64,000 nt of DNA from Bremia lactucae (lineage: Eukaryota > Oomycota > Peronosporomycetes > Peronosporales > Peronosporaceae). Below, piece after piece: positions 49,832 to 64,000 of this stretch (the stretch's first letter is position 1; each line of letters opens with the position of its first letter). The notes beneath the pieces were generated by a model, which saw only the letters and a list, made by a program, of their open reading frames with translations, was not told the DNA's origin and did no database searches. Location of the stretch: contig NC_090610.1 of NCBI RefSeq assembly GCF_004359215.1, positions 4,450,463 to 4,514,462 on the forward strand. Reading direction: 5' to 3'. The position numbers and the translations under genes are program-made.

Positions 49832-50363
49832 TGTAACGGGCTAAAGTTGCCCTAATAATACACAGTCCCCGTTAAGTACACATGGTGTGCTTAAGGGGAT
49901 GGTCAATTACTTAAAGAAATCAATTAGACCCACCACTCGGGTGTGGTTCACATTGTGACCGACCCTTGTGTATATGATGCACATAGGTGCATTCACATTA
50001 GGAGGGATGACGGCTAGCATCACCCGTTACGCGAGGTATTTAGGAAGATACGCTCGCAATACATATTAGTGTTACCTACCGAGATGACATTTTTGATTGG
50101 TAAAATTACGTAAATGTATTTAATGCGATTAAATATAAATCAGTCTGACAACTACTTTCTGATTAGTAAGTGCGCACGAGAAGCCGGATTACCGCTCCCG
50201 TGACGACACTTTACTAGAGTACTTAGTGCGTTAGGTGAGGTCGCTAAGGCGCCCACCACAACTACCTCACAGGACGCAAGAGAAGCCGGTCTAATCGCTT
50301 CCTGGCTGTGCTATGGTGTGTGTCAACGTAGAGTGTGGCCGCATTACGACGTGCCCGCCTACA
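49832..50363 (+). repeat. 5' LTR, family B (532 bp)
   Basis: Runs TGTAACGGGCTAAAGTTGCCC to GTGCCCGCCTACA, with TG...CA ends that are imperfect inverted repeats. Followed by a primer-binding site and gag. Confidence 0.88.
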
Positions 50364-52163: not shown

Positions 52164-53110
52164 GTGGCAGTAGACAGCGAGCTTACAGGAAGTCAAGCGT
52201 CGTATGAACTGGCACAGTGCGTAGAGTCTGGTGCGGTTGGAAGGGATGCGTTTGCCAGGAGAGCAACGACACCCGCTTCCCAGTCAAAGGTCGTGGTGAC
52301 TCGAAGAACGAGTACCCAACAGATTAGGACGATCAAAGGCACGTCTAAACGAGTGACTTTTGAATTAGTTCCTATTTAAAAAAACGGGCCTTCGAACGAG
52401 GTGTTTGGGGCCGTCAAAGACGAAATCGCGGAGGCATCCTTAGTTGAGGTGCTCCGGCAAGTCCTTAAATCTGTCGAGGAGATGGTAACTCTCCCGGAGA
52501 TGTCTTGGGATCTGTTTCTTGCCGAATTAAAGGAAGGAAAGATTCACGAAACAGTCACACCAGTTCCAGAAGAGAACTTGGTGGGCTGTTGCTTGTGGTC
52601 CACAATGGACGAGAGCGTCCTAGAAACGAACGAAAAGAAACGGCACGCTGCTCAAGGCTGGAATGCCTTGAGAGACAGTCCATTCTTTAAGGTTCTGTGG
52701 AAACATCGCGATGTGTTCCCAGAAGTGCTGAGCCGCCTACCAGCAGATGTGGGCATCGGGCACGAAATTGACCTCGAACCTGGCACCAAGTATTGTGTGA
52801 CCAGGCAATGGCCGTTGCCGAAAGAACAAGTCGATTATAGCGATGAATTTTACGACAAGCGAGCCAAGGCGGGACATGTGCGTGAGAGCAAATCGCCTCA
52901 CTACAGTCCGATCTTTTGTGTGCGTAAAGCCACTGGTGGATGATGCGCGGTTAATGCTTACCTTACAATAATCTGAGCACGGCGACCATACCGGCGCAAA
53001 TGCCAATCGCGCGAAAAGATGTTTTGTTAGACTCCATGGGAAAGTCAACTATCTTTTCCGCGTTGGATTTAAAGGATGGTTACTGTCAGGTACTCATGAC
53101 AGCGATGGCT
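52164..53110 (+). pseudogene. Reverse transcriptase, N-terminal part only
   Basis: Frame 52401-52943 encodes the linker and RT fingers (GIGHEIDLEPGTKYCVTRQW, then HVRESKSPHYSPIFCVRKAT). A TGA replaces the Trp codon expected after TGG. The palm start SMGKSTIFSALDLKDGYCQV is in a shifted frame near 53035-53090. The YxDD motif, thumb and RNase H are absent: sequence jumps to the integrase zinc domain at about 53110. Confidence 0.8.
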
Positions 53111-54144
53111 TGTTATGGCATCAGCTGTCACCTTGTGCTCCCTTGAGAATCTATGTGCCTCACGACACAGATCTCAGGCTAATGGTCCTTCACGAGCTCC
53201 ATGATGCACCATCTAATAGGCATTTAGGCCGTGAAAAGACATTCTTACGAGTGTCAGAGGAATTTTGGTGGCCACACCTATATAGACGGGTGGCCAACTA
53301 TATTCGCTCTTGCGAACAGTGCGCGCGCATTAAGCCTGCACCGTCCAGCAGTGCGCCACTGAAGCCGCTACCGATTCCATAGATTGTTGGAAGTCAGTAA
53401 GTCTGGAGTTCATGTTTGGCATGCCGCCCGATCATAAGGGTCGGACAGGGCTCGTCGTCTTTGTAGACAGACTGAGCAAAAATGTTCATTTAGCACCATG
53501 CAAAACATCGATCACAGGCAAGGAGGCAGCTGGATCATGTATACCGACTACACGGGATGCCCGATTCCATAGTATCGGACAGGGATCCACGTTTTACGTC
53601 TGGTATATGGCGACATGTGTTTGAGCTGTTAGGGAGCAAGCTTCACATGTCGACCGCAGATCATCCCCGTACCAATCGGGTCGTGGTGGATGTCTTACGC
53701 ACTATAGCAGCTCCCAAAGAGTGGAGCAAGCAATTGCCCCTTGTAGAGATTGCTATAAATAAAAAAGTCCACGCCAGTACGGGTGAGATAGCGTTTTATA
53801 TTTACGGACTGCGCCATCCTCGGACGCCAGTCTCGTTTGTGCGCAGCCCGAGTCTTAGTAGGGGAGGGCCCCTCACTATGCTCGGTGCGAAAGAGGGACA
53901 TAGTTTCGTCAATATGACGATGACCCTCGAGAGTATCATGTCATCGACAGAAACTGGCCCTAGTGACCCTGCCAGTTTAGCAGTGGTCAATAAAACTACG
54001 TCCTATGACCGACCTCTCGGCGGTATCATAGGCGAGTTTGATGCTAAACGCGTGAGCGAGGCTCAACGCTTTGTGGATGAGCGATTAGCCATCACACGAA
54101 AAGTCCGTGACGCGATGGCAAGCGCACAGGACAAGCAAAAATAA
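53111..54144 (+). pseudogene. Integrase, family B, left copy
   Basis: HHCC zinc domain at 53180-53330 (HELHDAPSNRHLG, then CEQCARIK). Core from 53406: the first catalytic Asp is replaced by Glu (LEFMFGMPPD, codon 53406-53408). The second Asp is present in SIVSDRDPRFTSG. The third residue is lost: relative to the right copy, 21 bp are missing at about 53670 (HPRTNRVV instead of HPQTDGQTERANRVV), removing the catalytic Glu. The frame ends at a TAA at 54142, shared by both copies. Confidence 0.85.
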
Positions 54145-54264
54145 TATGCGGACCGAAATGGTCGCAAAAATAATGAACTCTTTAGAGTGGGTGAAAAAGC
54201 ACTTTTGAGTACTGCTATTCCTACTTAAAATGCAATTTCTGTACTACCTGGAGGTGCTACAAAG

Positions 54265-54480
54265 TTGTTGCCGCGTTTCATTGGGCCCTTTACGGTGGTA
54301 GAAGAGGTTGGAGACCTAAATTATAGGCTCACCCTTCTCTCGTATATAAAGACGCACCCCGTATTTTACGTGGGTCGTCTTAAACGGTATGTAGACCCAA
54401 ATGAGGTCACATACCCCATCCGTCTAAGGAGACCGATGGTGACGCCGACTGTGAGTCGAGCGTCGTTCGGGTGAGGGGGA
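54265..54480 (+). pseudogene. Integrase C-terminal GPF module, left copy
   Basis: Encodes LPRFIGPFTVVEEVGDLNY, then HPVFYVGRLKRYVDP, the GPY/F-type integrase end. One C is missing in a C-run near 54417 relative to the right copy, shifting the last residues. It overlaps tail-to-tail with the antisense ORF that ends at 54424. Confidence 0.8.
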
Positions 54481-55191
54481 CAGAGAAGGCGAAAAACTAT
54501 CAGCCGATCGACTCCTCCCACCACGAATAGGACTCGGAGAGCGAGGGGCATCACGCGAGTAACGCGGCTCTCTCAGCATTATCCTCTTAAAACGTTCCAA
54601 GCGAGTCTTTAGGCGTTCATAACCCTGACGAGCCTTCGCTCGGACATCATGAAGATCCAAGATCAGTCGCGAGACTTGACCCTCGAGATCCGCAATACGT
54701 CGTTCAGCAGCGCTCAACGCCTGAGACTGAACGGACGAAGGTAAGGCAGCCGCGAGTAGGTGGGGATCACCACTCCTAACGGGCGCCGCCTGCACTGATG
54801 GATGCGGGTAGGAATCAACGTTTTCTTTTTGGAAGGTTGCTTGCCCACCGCTCCGTGAGGCAAAGGTATGAGATCCTCGTCCAATAGAAAGGTTATCCGA
54901 AGAGTTTCGACTCTTGTGAACCGATCGATACCCTACGTATTGATGTGCCCGGCGTGATGGCTGCCTATGAAAAGGAGCACCAGCTGAGGCCTCTTCGCTA
55001 ATCTTAAATGGACTAGCAGAAGCAGCGTTGTGAGAAGTAACAGGGGGTACAATACCGCCCATGATTTCTTTCACACGCAAGCGGGCGAAATTAATTCGTT
55101 GCGACCGCTGTTTCATCGCATCAAAATGCGGATGAATGCGGCGGAAGAATTCCGCCTCGTATTGGTCGGGCGTTTTAATTGAACGCAGCAC
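54424..55191 (-). CDS. Antisense ORF 2 of the family B element (left copy)
   Basis: Open for 255 codons opposite to pol, ending inside the 3' end of pol. No ATG at the frame start (the first codon is GTG); it may continue an upstream exon or frame. Blocks: TPDQYEAEFFRRIHPHFDAM, FARLRVKEIMGGIVPP, a Ser/His/Arg-rich middle, a coiled-coil-like segment (ALSAAERRIADLEGQVSRLI, then GYERLKTRLERFKRI) and a Ser/Arg/Pro-rich end (SRDAPRSPSPIRGG, HSRRHHRSP). Composition suggests a nucleic-acid-binding or nuclear protein; no domain recognised. Nearly identical in the right copy (56681-57448). Confidence 0.7.
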   Translation of the reverse strand: MLRSIKTPDQYEAEFFRRIHPHFDAMKQRSQRINFARLRVKEIMGGIVPPVTSHNAASASPFKISEEASAGAPFHRQPSRRAHQYVGYRSVHKSRNSSDNLSIGRGSHTFASRSGGQATFQKENVDSYPHPSVQAAPVRSGDPHLLAAALPSSVQSQALSAAERRIADLEGQVSRLILDLHDVRAKARQGYERLKTRLERFKRIMLREPRYSRDAPRSPSPIRGGRSRSADSFSPSLSPSPERRSTHSRRHHRSP

Positions 55192-55271
55192 GACCGGGAT
55201 CGGGAAAATACGCCCAAGCGATTTTCCCTGAGCCTTCCATGGCTTAAAGACGCCTTAATAACTATGTGCGT

Positions 55272-55824
55272 CTAGAAGAGCGCGCTATAGGAGCGACGCT
55301 CTTGGTCCAAAGGAGACCATTTAGATGGAGGGGGCATTAGTGATATGCCACCCGTCACATAGCCACGTTCTGAACAACTGGCTTGTGACACCGATTGAGC
55401 AAGTTCACGTGTCGTCGACGGAGCTTTAGGCTCAGAATTCTCGAAGTCAGAACCATTATGGATGATGGTCTGAGCATAAGGCGTTGTGGTTTTACCCAAC
55501 GAAGAAGCGGCTGCGGCTTTATGGGCAGCGCTCTCATTAACCGTCGCTGCGCTATCCAGCACAGACGACGAGACAGCATTCGTAAATAATGCTGTCTCCA
55601 TGTTGTGAGCCATGAAAGAAGTTTGGATGGGCAATAATGCGCCATCATCCTTCCTCATGAGCTCGTTGTCCGCATCACTACTATGAGGTGACGGCAACGG
55701 TGTCGACTCATTGTAGTCGACAATGAGCGACGGATCAACATCCTCACTGTTAAAGTGGGATGGATCCTTTAGCCCTGTTAACGCGACAGCCGCAGTGGCT
55801 GTCTGCGTTCCGACTAAGGCATTN
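55272..55824 (-). CDS. Antisense ORF 1 of the family B element (left copy, 5' end cut by the N)
   Basis: Open from the N at 55825 to a stop at 55272. Begins NALVGTQTATAAVALTGLKD, continues VDPSLIVDYNESTPLP and ends SKWSPLDQERRSYSALF. It is the only copy in which the N-terminal block (NAL) reads in frame into the rest; in the copies at 58.1 and 62.7 kb one base is missing there. The frame upstream of the N belongs to the joined integrase and is not part of this ORF. Confidence 0.65.
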
Positions 55825-55825
55825 C
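55825..55825. other. Single N at a sequence join
   Basis: The only ambiguous base in the window. Left of it the sequence matches up to 58078 of the right copy; right of it the sequence restarts at the position matching 53588. It therefore joins two copies of one 2.25-kb segment end to start. Confidence 0.95.
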
Positions 55826-56400
55826 GTTTTACGTCTGGTTTTTGGCGACATGTGTTCGAGCTGCTAGGTAGCAAGCTCCACATGTCGACCGCAGATCATC
55901 CCCAGACCGATGGCCAAACAGAACGTGCCAATCGGGTCGTGGCGGATGTCTTACGCACTATAGCAACTCCCAAAGAGTGGAGCAAGCAATTGCCCTTTGT
56001 GGAGTTCGCTATAAATAACAGTGTCCACGCCAGTACGGGTGAGACACCGTTTTATATTAACGGACTGCGCCATCCTCGGACGCCAGTCTCGTTTGTGCGC
56101 AGCCCGAGTCTTAGTGGGGGAGGGCCCCTCACTATGCTCGGTGCGAAAGAGGGACATAGTTTCGTCAATATGACGATGACCCGCGAGGGTATCATCTCAA
56201 CGACAGAAACTTGCCCTAGTGACCCTGCCAGTTTAGCAGTGGTCAATAAAACTACGTCCTATGACCGACCTCTCGGCGGTATCATAGGCGAGTTTGATGC
56301 TAAACGCGTGAGCGAGGCTCAACGCTTTGTGGATGAGCGATTAGCCATCACACGAAAAGTCCGTGACGCGATGGCAAGCGCACAGGACAAGCAAAAATAA
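55826..56400 (+). pseudogene. Integrase, family B, right copy
   Basis: Starts in mid-core (RFTSGFWRHVFELLGSKLHM) and keeps HPQTDGQTERANRVVADVL with the catalytic Glu, then FVEFAINNSVHASTGETPFY. It lacks the zinc domain and first Asp because of the join at the N. Ends at the same TAA as the left copy. Confidence 0.85.
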
Positions 56401-56520
56401 TATGCGGACCGAAATGGTCGCAAAAATAATGAACTCTTTAGAGTGGGTGAAAAAGCACTTTTGAGTACTGCTATTCCTACTTAAAATGCAATTTCTGTAC
56501 TACCTGGAGGTGCTACAAAG

Positions 56521-56787
56521 TTGTTGCCGCGTTTCATTGGGCCCTTTACGGTGGTAGAAGAGGTTGGAGACCTAAATTATAGGCTCACCCTTCTCTCGTA
56601 TATAAAGACGCACCCCGTATTTTACGTGGGTCGTCTTAAACGGTATGTAGACCCAAATGAGGTCACATACCCCCATCCGTCTAAGGAGACCGATGGTGAC
56701 GCCGACTGTGAGTCGAGCGTCGTTCGGGTGAGGGGGACAGAGAAGGCGAAAAACTATCAGCCGATCGACTCCTCCCACCACGAATAG
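56521..56787 (+). pseudogene. Integrase C-terminal GPF module, right copy
   Basis: Same GPF and HPVFYVGRLKRYVDP motifs as the left copy, but with the intact C-run, so pol reads on to IDSSHHE and a stop at 56785. The last 107 bp overlap the end of antisense ORF 2. Confidence 0.8.
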
Positions 56788-57448
56788 GACTCGGAGAGCG
56801 AGGGGCATCACGCGAGTAACGCGGCTCTCTCAGCATTATCCTCTTAAAACGTTCCAAGCGAGTCTTTAGGCGTTCATAACCCTGACGAGCCTTCGCTCGG
56901 ACATCATGAAGATCCAAGATCAGTCGCGAGACTTGACCCTCGAGATCCGCAATACGTCGTTCAGCAGCGCTCAACGCCTGAGACTGAACGGACGAAGGTA
57001 AGGCAGCCGCGAGTAGGTGGGGATCACCACTCCTAACGGGCGCCGCCTGCACTGATGGATGCGGGTAGGAATCAACGTTTTCTTTTTGGAAGGTTGCTTG
57101 CCCACCGCTCCGTGAGGCAAAGGTATGAGATCCTCGTCCAATAGAAAGGTTATTCGAAGAGTTTCGACTCTTGTGAACCGATCGATACCCTACGTATTGA
57201 TGTGCCCGGCGTGATGGCTGCCTATGAAAAGGAGCACCAGCTGAGGCCTCTTCGCTAATCTTAAATGGACTAGCAGAAGCAGCGTTGTGAGAAGTAACAG
57301 GGGGTACAATACCGCCCATGATTTCTTTCACACGCAAGCGGGCGAAATTAATTCGTTGCGACCGCTGTTTCATCGCATCAAAATGCGGATGAATGCGGCG
57401 GAAGAATTCCGCCTCGTATTGGTCGGGCGTTTTAATTGAACGCAGCAC
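56681..57448 (-). CDS. Antisense ORF 2 of the family B element (right copy)
   Basis: 255 codons, same as the left copy except for a few substitutions (one visible: SSNNL for SSDNL). Upstream, an ATG frame on the same strand starting near 57500 (MEGSGKIAWAYFPDPGR) stops after about 21 codons (RAAFN), just where this frame begins. So ORF 2 may be reached by a frameshift or by splicing, or the ancestor of all these copies was already broken. Confidence 0.7.
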   Translation of the reverse strand: MLRSIKTPDQYEAEFFRRIHPHFDAMKQRSQRINFARLRVKEIMGGIVPPVTSHNAASASPFKISEEASAGAPFHRQPSRRAHQYVGYRSVHKSRNSSNNLSIGRGSHTFASRSGGQATFQKENVDSYPHPSVQAAPVRSGDPHLLAAALPSSVQSQALSAAERRIADLEGQVSRLILDLHDVRAKARQGYERLKTRLERFKRIMLREPRYSRDAPRSPSPIRGGRSRSADSFSPSLSPSPERRSTHSRRHHRSP

Positions 57449-57528
57449 GACCGGGATCGGGAAAATACGCCCAAGCGATTTTCCCTGAGCCTTCCATGGC
57501 TTAAAGACGCCTTAATAACTATGTGCGT

Positions 57529-58178
57529 CTAGAAGAGCGCGCTATAGGAGCGACGCTCTTGGTCCAAAGGAGACCATTTAGATGGAGGGGGCATTAGTGA
57601 TATGCCACCCGTCACATAGCCACGTTCTGAACAACTGGCTTGTGACACCGATTGAGCAAGTTCACGTGTCGTCGACGGAGCTTTAGGCTCAGAATTCTCG
57701 AAGTCAGAACCATTATGGATGATGGTCTGAGCATAAGGCGTTGTGGTTTTACCCAACGAAGAAGCGGCTGCGGCTTTATGGGCAGCGCTCTCATTAACCG
57801 TCGCTGCGCTATCCAGCACATACGACGAGACAGCATTCGTAAATAATGCTGTCTCCATGTTGTGAGCCATGAAAGAAGTTTGGATGGGCAATAATGCGCC
57901 ATCATCCTTCCTCATGAGCTCGTTGTCCGCATCACTACTATGACGTGACGGCAACGGTGTCGACTCATTGTAGTCGACAATGAGCGACGGATCAACATCC
58001 TCACTGATAAAGTAAGATGGATCCTTAAGCCCTGTTAACGCGACAGCAGCAGTAGCTGTCGGCATTTGATTAAGGCATTAGACACTGCCGGCGTGGTAAC
58101 GCGGCGCGTGCGCTTAATGCGAGGTTGAGTAGGCGTCTTCGCAGACGACCCACCAACGTGGCCCCTTTTCGGTGGCAT
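57529..58178 (-). CDS. Antisense ORF 1 of the family B element (right copy, one frameshift)
   Basis: Starts at ATG 58178 (MPPKRGHVGG, then KRTRRV), a basic start resembling a nuclear localisation signal. This frame ends after 47 codons (stop 58037-58035); the neighbouring frame opens at 58065 and continues 178 codons to YSALF at 57529. Comparison with the left copy shows one missing base near 58055. Ser/Thr/Ala-rich middle (NALVG-like, AAHKAAAASSLGKTT) and a conserved end. No domain recognised. It begins 131 bp from the 3' LTR and points toward pol. Confidence 0.7.
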
Positions 58179-58308
58179 CTTTGGAGCCGTGTGTGTGAAC
58201 ACAGGTCGCTAGAGTGATTGAGTGAACTAGCGGCGCGTAAAGGTGCTCGCAGTTCCTCGCTCTTTTATACAAATTTAAAATGTAAATTTGTTCTTTAAGG
58301 GGGGATGG
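58179..58308 (-). promoter_or_regulatory. Probable promoter of the antisense ORFs, and polypurine tract
   Basis: On the minus strand a TATAAAA box (58269-58263) lies about 85 bp before ATG 58178, with ttcactcaatcac between them, which loosely resembles an oomycete initiator. On the plus strand the same 130 bp ends in aaggggggatgg (58297-58308), the polypurine tract that primes plus-strand synthesis next to the LTR. The inverted copy at 62609-62738 is the same. Confidence 0.6.
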
Positions 58309-58841
58309 TGTAACGGGCTAAAGTTGCCCTAATGTTACACAGTCCCAGTTTAGTACACTTGGTGTACTTAAAGGGTATGTCAATTACCTAAATAAAGTAA
58401 TTAGACCCACCACTCGGGTGTGGTTCACATTGTGACCGACCCTTGTGTATATGATGCACATAGGTGCATTCACATTAGGAGGGATGACGCCGAGCGTCAT
58501 CCGTTACGCGAGGTATCTAGAAAGATACGCTCGCAATATATATTAGTGTTATCGACAGAGATGACATTTTATGATTGGTCAAAATCGGTATTTATATCTT
58601 ATACGATTCAATCTGAATTAGTTCGAAAATTACTTCCTACTTGGTAAGTGCGCACGAGGAGTCGGATCACCGCTCCTGTGACGACACGTATACCAGAGTT
58701 CTTAGTGCGTTGGGTGAGGTCGCTACGGCTCCCACCACAACTACCTCACTGCACGCGATGGTATACGGTCAAACAGTTTCTCGCTGTGCTAGGGTTCGTG
58801 CTTAAGTAGAGCGTGGCCGCATTAAGACGTGCCCGCCTTCA
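58309..58841 (+). repeat. 3' LTR, family B (533 bp)
   Basis: Runs TGTAACGGGCTAAAGTTGCCC to CGTGCCCGCCTTCA. Aligned with 49832-50363 and, reversed, with 62086-62608. Differences from the 5' LTR are numerous, including in the agtcccagttt region. Confidence 0.88.
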
Positions 58842-60692: not shown

Positions 60693-62085
60693 GGTCACAT
60701 ATTGGAGAAAAACTTCACATTGTGGAAAGGTTGCTTAGTCTTCGTCAGCGCAGCCGCTAAATAGGACGACTAGCGAAATGGCACGGCCTCCCGGAGTGCA
60801 ATAGTACTTGGAGCGCGAGAAATCTATCCGCCACGATTCGCATTGAAAGCGACTAGTACAGGACTTTCAATACCGCCTACGCGAAGTCAAGTCAGGGGAG
60901 ATGTCAAGCCGCCAGATACGTGCGGCACGACAGAGCACGTACCCAAGTATAATAGATTTCGTCGGCTCGAAACTTGACTCCGTCGTGGCAAGTGTTTATA
61001 TTAAGCTTTCCGCTGAAATTTGTCAAATAATGTTGCCAAGTATACAAGTTCTAACTAGGAAGGGCTTGTCAAATAACACGAGTGATACAGCCAGGCGAGG
61101 ACTTTCATGAAAATAATAATAAGTTTGGTTAGTGGGTTCTCTTAGATCACCTAAATGTAATTTAAATTGGATTGAATAACCCGCGTATCGGTGCGCGCAA
61201 TTCTTCACGCGAAGGCCTTAGGCGTTCTTATTATTAAGAGCAGTCGATATATTATTTTTTTTCTTTTATACAAAATAAGCAGGCTCTTACGCTGTAAGGC
61301 TTTGCTTTAGCTGCAACGTTTAATGATCTGGCACAAGGAAAGTTGTCGCAAATGAAATAGTCTTAAAGCGCCTTGTCAAAGCATACCTCTAATTTACCCC
61401 TAAAAACGATCCGTGATGCTGCAATGGTAGATGACAAAGTCTTTCGTATTAAGGTATCACAACTTAATTACAGCGGATCTTACACTTAAAGGCAAACTTG
61501 ATTCAAATATAATTACATTTAGAAAATAAGAAGTTAATATATTCCTTACTTAAACTCTGCAAAGCTAAAAAATGGTATAAATTATCATTTATATATTTTT
61601 TCAGTCTATATTCTTCTGTTGAATCCTTTGGAGGTGGTGAAGTGAAGCAAGTCCATATTAAAGCTTTAATAAGATCACATTCCATGTTTTCAGCTATTCG
61701 CAGCCGTTTGGTCATATTCCTAGTGGACAAGATATATATACATACACACATCTATCCGCTCAATAAATTTATGATTTGAGAGGAACGTCGATATTATTGG
61801 GCTATAGCAATGTTATGATAACATTTAGACCGTAAGAAAAAACTCAAATATAGCGCAAAAAATGCGAGAGTGTGTAACATTTCCGTCACATATCAACTTC
61901 ATGATTTGAACTTCCAACCCGTGAACTTCATCTCCGGATACTACTCAAAACGAAACGGGCCTCGAATTACTTTCTTACCGTACCATCAGGTACGTCGAAG
62001 AAAACTTGATAGCTAGCATTGGGGAAAGCGTCCTGACCTCGTCAACAAGGCTTCCCAAATAACCATGCCAGGATGCTATCATAAC
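60693..62085. other. AT-rich spacer
   Basis: No gene recognised. Frames such as 61503-61751 minus lack known motifs. The last 5 bp before the LTR are ataac. Confidence 0.4.
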
Positions 62086-62608
62086 TGTAGGCGGGCACGT
62101 CGTATTGCGGCCACGCTCTTCTTAGACACACACCCTAGCACAGCGAGGAAGCGGTTAAACCAGCTTCTCTTGCGTGCAGTGAGGTAGTTGCGGGGGCGCC
62201 TTAGCGACCTCACCCAACGCACTAACTACTCTAGTAAAGTGTCGTCACGGGAGCGGTGATCCGGCTCCTCGTGTGCACTAACTAAGTATAAAGTTTTCAG
62301 ACTGATTTCGATTTAATCGCATTAAATATGAATACCTATTTTTAACAATCTTAAAATGTCATCTCTATAGATAACACTTATATGAATTGCGAGCTATCAT
62401 TCTAGATTTTTCACGTAACGGATGACGCTAGCCGTGATTACGGATGACGCTAGGCGTCATGCCTCCTAATGCGAATGCACCTATGTGCATCACACACACC
62501 CGAGTGGTGGGTCTAATTACTTTAATTTAGTAATTGACTATCCCCTTAAGTACACCAAGTATACTTAACGGGGACTGTGTAACATTAGGGCAACTTTAGC
62601 CCGTTACA
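62086..62608 (-). repeat. 3' LTR, family B, inverted copy (523 bp)
   Basis: Plus strand runs TGTAGGCGGGCACG to GCCCGTTACA, the reverse of the 58309 LTR. Followed by ccatccccccttaaag, the complement of the polypurine tract, so the element lies to the right on the minus strand and leaves the window. Confidence 0.88.
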
Positions 62609-62738
62609 CCATCCCCCCTTAAAGAACAAATTTACATTTTAAATTTGTATAAAAGAGCGAGGAACTGCGAGCAGCTTTACGCGCCGCTAGTTCACTCAAT
62701 CACTCTAGCGACCTGTGTTCACACACACGGCTCCAAAG
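62609..62738 (+). promoter_or_regulatory. Probable promoter of the antisense ORFs, inverted copy
   Basis: TATAAAA at 62648-62654, then ttcactcaat at 62691-62700 as a possible initiator, and ATG at 62739. Same layout as 58308-58179. Confidence 0.6.
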
Positions 62739-63388
62739 ATGCCACCGAAAAGGGGCCACGTTGGTGGGTCGTCTGCGAAGACGCCCACTCAACCTCGCAT
62801 TAAGCGCACGCGCCGCGTTACCACGCCGGAAGTGTCTAATGCCTTAATCAAACGCCGACAGCTACTGTTGCTGTCGCGTTAACAGGGCTTAAGAATTCAT
62901 CTTACTTTATCAGTGAGGATGTTGATCCGTCGCTCATTGTCGACTACAATGAGTCGACACCGTTGCCGTCACGTCATAGTAGTGATGCGGACAACGAGCT
63001 CATGAGGAAGGATGATGGCGCATTATTGCCCATCCAAACTTCTTTCATGGCTCACAACATGGAGACAGCATTATTTACGAATGCTGTCTCGTCGTCTGTG
63101 CTGGATAGCGCAGCGACGGTTAATGAGAGCGCTGCCCATAAAGCCGCAGCCGCTTCTTCGTTGGGTAAAACCACAACGCCTTATGCTCAGACCATCATCC
63201 ATAATGGTTCTGACTTCGAGAATTCTGAGCCTAAAGCTCCGTCGACGACACGTGAACTTGCTCAATCGGTGTCACAAGCCAGTTGTTTAGAACGTGGCTA
63301 TGTGACGGGTGGCATATCACTAATGCCCCCTCCATCTAAATGGTCTCCTTTGGACCAAGAGCGTCGCTCCTATAGCGCGCTCTTCTAG
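62739..63388 (+). CDS. Antisense ORF 1 of the family B element (inverted copy, one frameshift)
   Basis: ATG 62739 gives MPPKRGHVGGSSAKTPTQPR, then KRTRRVTTPEVSNALI, stopping after 47 codons at 62880-62882. The second frame carries VDPSLIVDYNES through to SYSALF and a stop at 63386. The same single missing base as in the 58.1-kb copy separates the frames, so these two copies share an ancestor already shifted. Orientation is opposite to the inferred pol of this element. Confidence 0.7.
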
Positions 63389-63468
63389 ACGCACATAGTT
63401 ATTAAGGCGTCTTTAAGCCATGGAAGGCTCAGGGAAAATCGCTTGGGCGTATTTTCCCGATCCCGGTC

Positions 63469-63939
63469 GTGCTGCGTTCAATTAAAACGCCCGACCAATA
63501 CGAGGCGGAATTCTTCCGCCGCATTCATCCGCATTTTGATGCGATGAAACAGCGGTCGCAACGAATTAATTTCGCCCGCTTGCGTGTGAAAGAAATCATG
63601 GGCGGTATTGTACCCCCTGTTACTTCTCACAACGCTGCTTCTGCTAGTCCATTTAAGATTAGCGAAGAGGCCTCAGCTGGTGCTCCTTTTCATAGGCAGC
63701 CATCACGCCGGGCACATCAATACGTAGGGTATCGATCGGTTCACAAGAGTCGAAACTCTTCGGATAACCTTTCTATTGGACGAGGATCTCATACCTTTGC
63801 CTCACGGAGCGGTGGGCAAGCAACCTTCCAAAAAGAAAACGTTGATTCCTACCCGCATCCATCAGTGCAGGCGGCGCCCGTTAGGAGTGGTGATCCCCAC
63901 CTACTCGCGGCTGCCTTACCTTCGTCCGTTCAGTCTTAG
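63469..63939 (+). pseudogene. Antisense ORF 2 of the family B element (inverted copy, premature stop)
   Basis: Same frame as 57448-56681 but a TAG at 63937-63939 replaces the CAG (Gln) of the other two copies in PSSVQSQALS, cutting the coiled-coil and Ser/Arg tail. Coding similarity continues past the stop to the window edge at 64000. Confidence 0.8.
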
Positions 63940-64000
63940 GCGTTGAGCGCTGCTGAACGACGTATTGCGGATCTCGAGGGTCAAGTCTCGCGACTGATCT

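What the first reader, a model, noticed from the sequence alone, without database searches (positions are those of the whole stretch)
53111..58308. Antisense gene pair between pol and the 3' LTR of a Ty3/Gypsy element
With the 5' LTR at 49832, gag, protease, RT and integrase all on the plus strand, two long ORFs (about 180-230 and 255 codons) lie on the minus strand between the integrase end and the 3' LTR. They start beside the LTR behind a TATA-like box and meet pol tail-to-tail with about 107 bp overlap. They recur in the inverted copy at 62.7-64 kb. Extra antisense ORFs are known from some plant Ty3/Gypsy elements, but I know of no described oomycete example. ORF 1 has a basic nuclear-signal-like start; ORF 2 has a coiled coil and a Ser/Arg-rich end.
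Basis: partly seen in the sequence, partly recalled or inferred. Interest (0 to 1): 0.85.

Follow-up and report, generated by a model that had tools for sequence, protein, structure and literature searches.

The report
Antisense gene overlapping retrotransposon chromodomain
A family of jumping genes, probably of downy-mildew water moulds, carries an extra gene read backwards from its tail, whose last part shares its DNA, on the opposite strand, with the chromatin-reading end of the element's own enzyme gene.

Summary
The antisense coding region is real, but it is one gene, not a pair. The window holds an old, broken copy: LTRs 85% alike, most of RT missing, the antisense frame cut by frameshifts and a stop. 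Across 46 genomic copies the antisense frame has only one stop found in 30% or more of copies, at codon 494; copy L014 is open for all 493 codons. Related proteins, some about 480 aa long, occur in Peronospora effusa and P. farinosa, with evidence for the same position between integrase and LTR. No Pfam family or solved structure matches. The TATA box and the 107-bp overlap are private to this copy. In the family the overlap is about 578 nt, and its opposite strand encodes the chromodomain of pol (PF00385, best E 9.7e-11). The relatives' proteins stay compatible with that chromodomain opposite them. The chromodomain faces a disordered antisense stretch; the antisense long helix faces the pol linker. 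Best reading: an antisense accessory gene of the kind known from plant Tat elements and fungal Boty, encoding an unrelated, probably nuclear regulatory protein. Transcription and function are untested. New variant of a known kind.

The parts
49832..50360 (+). 5' LTR
   Evidence: 85% identical to the 3' LTR over 534 columns
58309..58838 (+). 3' LTR
58297..58308 (+). polypurine tract beside the 3' LTR (named by its look)
   Evidence: sequence printed
56681..58178 (-). antisense gene, one frame of about 493 codons in the family, broken in this copy by frameshifts and a stop
57529..58077 (-). the finding's ORF 1: upstream fragment of the antisense gene
56681..57511 (-). the finding's ORF 2: rest of the conserved core, long helix and SR-rich end of the antisense gene
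57064..57249 (+). decayed chromodomain of pol, on the strand opposite the antisense gene
   Evidence: tblastn E 3.5e-26 with an internal stop; Pfam Chromo in the same frame of other copies
53100..53102 (+). place of the missing RT/RNase H stretch of about 1.19 kb
   Evidence: comparison with L071
53590..55823 (.). direct duplicate of the 3' part (antisense gene about 99%, integrase part 90-94% alike), ending at a single N at 55824
62495..64000 (.). inverted duplicate of the antisense gene and LTR start, 99% alike
58262..58269 (-). TATAAAAG, private to this copy
   Evidence: 1 of 36 copies with sequence there

Best explanation
A chromodomain-bearing Ty3/Gypsy family carries one integral antisense accessory gene of about 480-493 codons that starts about 130 nt inside the 3' LTR and runs towards pol. 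Shown: the family-wide open frame, its conservation in other genera, its place between LTR and integrase end, and an overlap of about 578 nt whose opposite strand encodes the end of pol with its chromodomain. Supported but indirect: in the overlap the constraint is partitioned, the chromodomain facing a disordered antisense stretch and the antisense long helix facing the pol linker. Inferred only: the protein (basic NLS-like start, conserved helical core, likely coiled coil, Ser/Arg-rich tail) is made from an antisense promoter near the 3' LTR, forms oligomers, enters the nucleus and regulates transcription, RNA handling or integration of the element, much as HBZ does for HTLV-1 and as has been proposed for the Grande and Retand antisense proteins. 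Likelihoods: gene real and integral 0.95; double coding with the chromodomain kept across genera 0.8; nuclear regulator 0.45. The figure below is for the whole statement.
For: 46 copies: the only stop present in 30% or more of copies is codon 494, in 36 of 39. 19 related proteins in three searches, including P. effusa P0006, 481 aa, 49% identical over 90% of the query. Position kept: the C-terminal end of P. farinosa P0008 matches the antisense of the integrase end at 56721-56575 (69% over 49 aa, E 6e-20), and the upstream part of P0001 matches the LTR/polypurine stretch (E 1.5e-5 here, 2.6e-6 in the inverted copy). An LTR start lies 100-193 nt from the antisense ATG in 58 of 71 loci. Chromodomain on the opposite strand: Pfam above cut-off in 3 of 6 sense ORFs scanned across the overlap and tblastn hits in 60 of 71 loci. 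Compatibility of nine relatives plus L014 with that chromodomain: 29-36 of 39 residues against a background mean of about 10.5. Changed residue pairs keep the sense residue more often opposite the chromodomain than in codons 1-303, Fisher p 0.0002-0.02 in 6 of 7 relatives.
Against: No antisense RNA or protein was seen; none could be tested. Within the genome no frame-specific selection is visible. Only 1 of 32 full-length copies, the reference itself, has neither stop nor frameshift. One of seven relatives (P0005) gives p 0.13 in the compatibility test, and the relatives are not independent. DNA of the Peronospora copies could not be read, so double coding there is deduced from proteins. The structure models are poor (mean pLDDT 47 and 46.5). 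11 of 71 loci have no LTR start within 400 nt and 2 gave no hit.
Confidence: 0.5

Rival explanations
1. The antisense RNA, not the protein, is what matters: transcription converging on pol gives double-stranded RNA that feeds small-RNA silencing or tunes the element.
For: An overlap of about 578 nt with pol; proposed for plant antisense ORFs in PMC7264820 (parts 1-2 of 3 seen).
Against: RNA alone does not need a 480-codon open frame kept across genera, nor a conserved protein core in codons 171-303 where no sense frame lies opposite. Both could hold together.
Confidence: 0.2
2. The antisense frame is a by-product of composition or of coding on the sense strand and makes no useful protein.
For: Neutral pattern within this genome; part of the antisense conservation in the overlap can be ascribed to the chromodomain opposite.
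Against: Codons 1-303 have recurrent stops in every sense frame opposite them, yet stay open and are conserved across genera, most in residues 171-303 (79 of 133 identical to P0006; 69 of 152 in residues 1-170).
Confidence: 0.05
3. The antisense gene belongs to another mobile element nested in the Gypsy, or is a captured host gene, and is only a passenger.
For: Opposite orientation; no similarity to other Gypsy proteins found.
Against: It reaches into the pol chromodomain, sits at a nearly fixed distance from the LTR in 58 of 71 loci, and the position is kept in P0001 and P0008. No relative outside such elements was recognised among the 19 proteins, though most could not be placed.
Confidence: 0.08

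Closest known systems
Antisense additional ORFs of plant Tat-type Gypsy elements (Grande gene23, RIRE2, Retand)
   Same: Long antisense ORF between pol and the 3' LTR, kept in most copies; Grande protein nuclear and transcribed from its own promoter (PMC7264820 parts 1-2 of 3; PMC11963269 passages).
   Different: Protein unrelated at Pfam level: no Transposase_28 (PF04195) match in 16 relatives. Here the gene overlaps the pol chromodomain; such an overlap was not mentioned in the passages I saw.
brtn, the antisense gene of Botrytis Boty elements
   Same: Antisense gene between pol and the 3' LTR of a non-plant Gypsy (PMC7264820; PMC8365987 passages).
   Different: Sequence not compared here; host is a fungus.
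Chronos Gypsy elements of oomycetes
   Same: Oomycete Gypsy with a chromodomain at the 3' end of pol (PMC5348765, abstract and passages).
   Different: Chronos has dual RNase H; the one copy with RT/RNase H sequence here (L071) shows RT_RNaseH only. The word antisense does not occur in that paper's main text.
HBZ of HTLV-1 (and ASP of HIV-1, recalled)
   Same: Antisense gene started near the 3' LTR; HBZ is nuclear (PMC11963269 passages).
   Different: No bZIP family match; no evidence of common descent.

Membership tests
Antisense additional ORF between pol and 3' LTR (aORF-3R class) | long antisense ORF in that place | tested here: met
Antisense additional ORF between pol and 3' LTR (aORF-3R class) | present in most copies of the family | tested here: inconclusive
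   Copies were found by searching for the gene itself, so copies without it would not appear
Antisense additional ORF between pol and 3' LTR (aORF-3R class) | transcribed antisense from its own promoter | not testable with these tools
   no RNA data held
Retand antisense proteins | Transposase_28 domain (PF04195) | tested here: not met
   not among the families matched by 16 relatives at E up to 1
Chronos | chromodomain at the end of pol | tested here: met
   PF00385 above cut-off in L030, L021, L034
Chronos | dual RNase H (Gypsy type plus plant-like) | tested here: inconclusive
   only RT_RNaseH families in the one copy with sequence there; the stretch up to the integrase was not scanned in one frame
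Chronos | RT phylogeny | not tested
   no tree built
HBZ-like bZIP factors | bZIP domain | tested here: not met
   no bZIP family at E up to 1 in Pfam scans; no related PDB chain

The most novel reading that the evidence does not exclude
About 0.6 kb of the same DNA codes on both strands for two parts the element needs: on one strand the pol chromodomain, which may steer integration, on the other the tail of an antisense nuclear protein. The two sets of constraint are interleaved so that each folded part faces the other's loose linker, an arrangement kept between this genome's family and that of Peronospora. It would be a retrotransposon counterpart of HBZ or ASP and a natural case of antisense overprinting that can be read position by position.
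Probability: 0.4. Interest if true: 0.8.

Novelty: new variant of a known kind. Interest (0 to 1): 0.62.

Why it matters
Antisense accessory genes are known from plant and fungal Gypsy elements, with functions still open. An oomycete case with an unrelated protein would show that the arrangement arises repeatedly. The overlap with the chromodomain ties the antisense gene to the part of pol thought to steer integration, and makes antisense overlapping coding testable by codon analysis on public downy-mildew genomes. It also matters for annotation: the P. effusa and P. farinosa relatives stand in databases as unnamed proteins.

Tried and rejected
Within-genome N/S test on 46 copies: changes are spread evenly over codon positions (singletons 359/371/360) and the drop from single to shared variants is alike in the gene frame (odds ratio 0.77) and the five others (0.77-0.86), so it cannot decide. 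TATA box as the family's promoter: rejected, private. Inverted and direct copies as independent support: rejected. Two genes: rejected. Pfam, PDB sequence and PDB fold searches of the protein gave nothing usable (best fold match E 5.1). Viral contigs held no confirmed relative. Searching this genome with P0007 and P0006 for deeper subfamilies listed places that largely repeat the family already found. Literature: in the rows shown by nine answered searches (several listed only part of their matches) I saw no paper on an antisense gene of an oomycete Gypsy element; the library lacks most subscription papers.

Rows dropped: of 71 loci (several overlap in place) 48 passed the filter (at least 1000 nt covered, at most 20 N, not contained in another); L002 and L003 were then dropped as near-duplicates of the window copy, leaving 46. 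In one search, 2 of 12 proteins (P0004, P0011) end before the 39-residue stretch is complete, score 19, and are left out of the 29-36 range. Searches scored only the candidates sharing most words (7998 and 7994), so distant relatives may be missed.
Full report
Where it lies. The window is G000:C1:4450463-4514462 of a 115.9-Mb, 220-contig genome. The named protein relatives are all from Peronospora, so a downy mildew is likely; Bremia lactucae would fit (inference, assembly size recalled; passages of PMC6570648 report a Gypsy-dominated Bremia genome).

The element. LTRs lie at 49832-50360 and 58309-58838 and are 85% identical over 534 columns, so this is an old insertion. A polypurine tract precedes the 3' LTR. 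Pfam finds the integrase H2C2 domain (4.7e-20) and an SH3-like integrase end (1.7e-14) on the plus strand. About 1.19 kb of RT/RNase H present in copy L071 is missing near 53100. The 3' part is present twice head to tail (53590-55823 and from 55825), joined at a single N, and once more inverted at 62495-64000. The antisense gene is about 99% alike in the three; the integrase part of the two direct copies is 90-94% alike. Other listed copies are 86-90% identical to the window. The three therefore look like local duplications or assembly joins of an already broken copy.

One gene, not two. The two minus-strand ORFs are fragments of one frame. Other copies hold it unbroken or nearly so: L014 525 codons stop to stop (493 from the ATG), L016 504, L032 490. 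In an alignment of 46 copies (48 of 71 loci passed the filter, 2 near-duplicates dropped) the antisense frame has 129 stop cells in 21,270 codon cells, 36 of them at codon 494, the only codon with a stop in 30% or more of the copies. By the same threshold the one other antisense frame printed has 42 such codons and the three sense frames 31, 32 and 20. Among 32 full-length copies only L014, the reference itself, has neither stop nor frameshift.

Conserved beyond this genome. Three protein searches returned 19 proteins in all. Seven carry a name: six from P. effusa and one from P. farinosa; the other twelve come from unnamed sources. None named Phytophthora was listed, but two of the searches scored only part of their candidates. 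P. effusa P0006 has 481 aa and is 49% identical to the query. The start MPPKRG is shared by most relatives that reach it (MPLKRG in P0006), and a core (about residues 171-303, with PIPVVL and NET) by all that span it, with few changes. The place is shared too. The C-terminal end of P0008 reads, in a shifted frame, into the antisense of the integrase end and matches the window at 69% over 49 aa (E 6e-20). The upstream part of P0001 matches the LTR/polypurine stretch (E 1.5e-5 at this copy, 2.6e-6 at the inverted one), with gaps and stops. In this genome 58 of 71 loci have an LTR start 100-193 nt from the antisense ATG on the other strand; 11 have none within 400 nt and 2 gave no hit.

Is it under selection? 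Within this genome the test is silent: singleton changes fall 359/371/360 on codon positions 1/2/3, and the shift from single to shared variants is similar in the other five frames, as expected of copies that died on insertion. Between genera the frame is kept. Over codons 1-303, 148 of 285 aligned residues are identical between L014 and P0006. With 49 of 821 singleton replacement changes making stops, the 137 differences should have made about 8 stops if unconstrained; P0006 has none. P0006 is a called ORF, which favours this outcome, but the open frame of the family here does not depend on that. Identity is higher in residues 171-303 (79 of 133) than in 1-170 (69 of 152).

The overlap with pol. 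The window's 107-bp overlap ends at a private stop. In the family the sense frame has no recurrent stop before antisense nt 907 (stop there in 42 of 46), giving about 578 nt of overlap. That frame encodes the chromodomain of pol. Of six sense ORFs scanned across the overlap, Pfam Chromo is above its cut-off in three (L030 9.7e-11, L021 3.2e-9, L034 2.6e-7), below it in two (L016, L027) and absent in one (L012); in L030 an integrase SH3-like match, below cut-off, is in the same frame. A chromodomain is found by tblastn in 60 of 71 loci. In the window it lies at 57064-57249 with an internal stop.

Double coding in other genera. DNA of the relatives could not be read, so I asked whether their antisense proteins could have the chromodomain opposite them. 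L014 and nine relatives span the place; they allow 29-36 of 39 chromodomain residues at their best position, against a mean of about 10.5 over all positions. The 17-residue motif around the two tryptophans fits fully in P0006 and seven others, 14-16 in P0007, P0009 and P0018, and 10 in P0004, which ends too early. Counting only residue pairs that changed, the sense residue is still possible in 68-87% of pairs for antisense residues 304-376 and in 48-59% for residues 1-303; Fisher p is 0.0002 to 0.02 in six of seven relatives and 0.13 in P0005. The relatives are not independent of each other. For residues 377-420 compatibility is 43-59% in six relatives (7 of 8 pairs in the truncated P0018), while antisense identity is 68-80% in five, 24 of 44 in P0007 and 6 of 10 in P0018. 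So the chromodomain faces a loose antisense stretch, and the antisense long helix faces the linker of pol.

The protein. Basic NLS-like start, conserved acidic motif, helical core, Ser-rich linker, long helix, SR-rich tail. Pfam gives only weak matches, mostly to coiled-coil families and all below cut-off; the best PDB match is E 0.6, in the helix. The models are poor overall (mean pLDDT 47.0 and 46.5), apart from about 40 residues of the helix at 366-435 of P0006 and moderate helices in the core; the fold search gave nothing. A nuclear regulatory role is inference from composition and from Grande gene23 and HBZ (PMC7264820 parts 1-2 of 3; PMC11963269 passages).

Promoter. A stretch around TTCACTC flanked by CGCTAG and CTAGCG recurs in many of the rows printed. 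Whether it works as an initiator is unknown.

Against what is known. Antisense ORFs between pol and the 3' LTR are known in plant Tat elements and in Botrytis Boty (PMC7264820, PMC8365987 passages). The closest oomycete group that I met in print, Chronos, has a chromodomain and dual RNase H, and the paper's main text does not contain the word antisense (PMC5348765). L071 shows one RNase H type only, so Chronos membership is open. A brown-alga study describes other chromodomain Gypsy lineages (PMC12477816 passages). I saw no report of an oomycete case in the searches named under Tried and rejected.

Noticed in passing
window 55824 and 53590-58100: The two head-to-tail copies meet at a single N; identity between them varies from 90% to 100% along their length, which could be an assembly join or gene conversion.
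   Followed up: partly
G000 contigs C1 (four places), C6, C16, C165, C179: Eight listed places share the same score, identity and stop pattern over ORF 2 (272 codons, 1 TGA, 1 TAA), as if one broken copy had been multiplied recently.
   Followed up: no
window 60704-60811 +: Weak second chromodomain-like match (E 0.002, with a stop), perhaps a relic of another Gypsy element.
   Followed up: no
L069 5958-9284 +: An open frame of 1109 codons beside an element copy; nature unknown.
   Followed up: no
about 25-60 nt upstream of the antisense ATG, rows: A short inverted repeat, CGCTAG ... CTAGCG, around TTCACTC recurs in many copies beside the antisense start.
   Followed up: no
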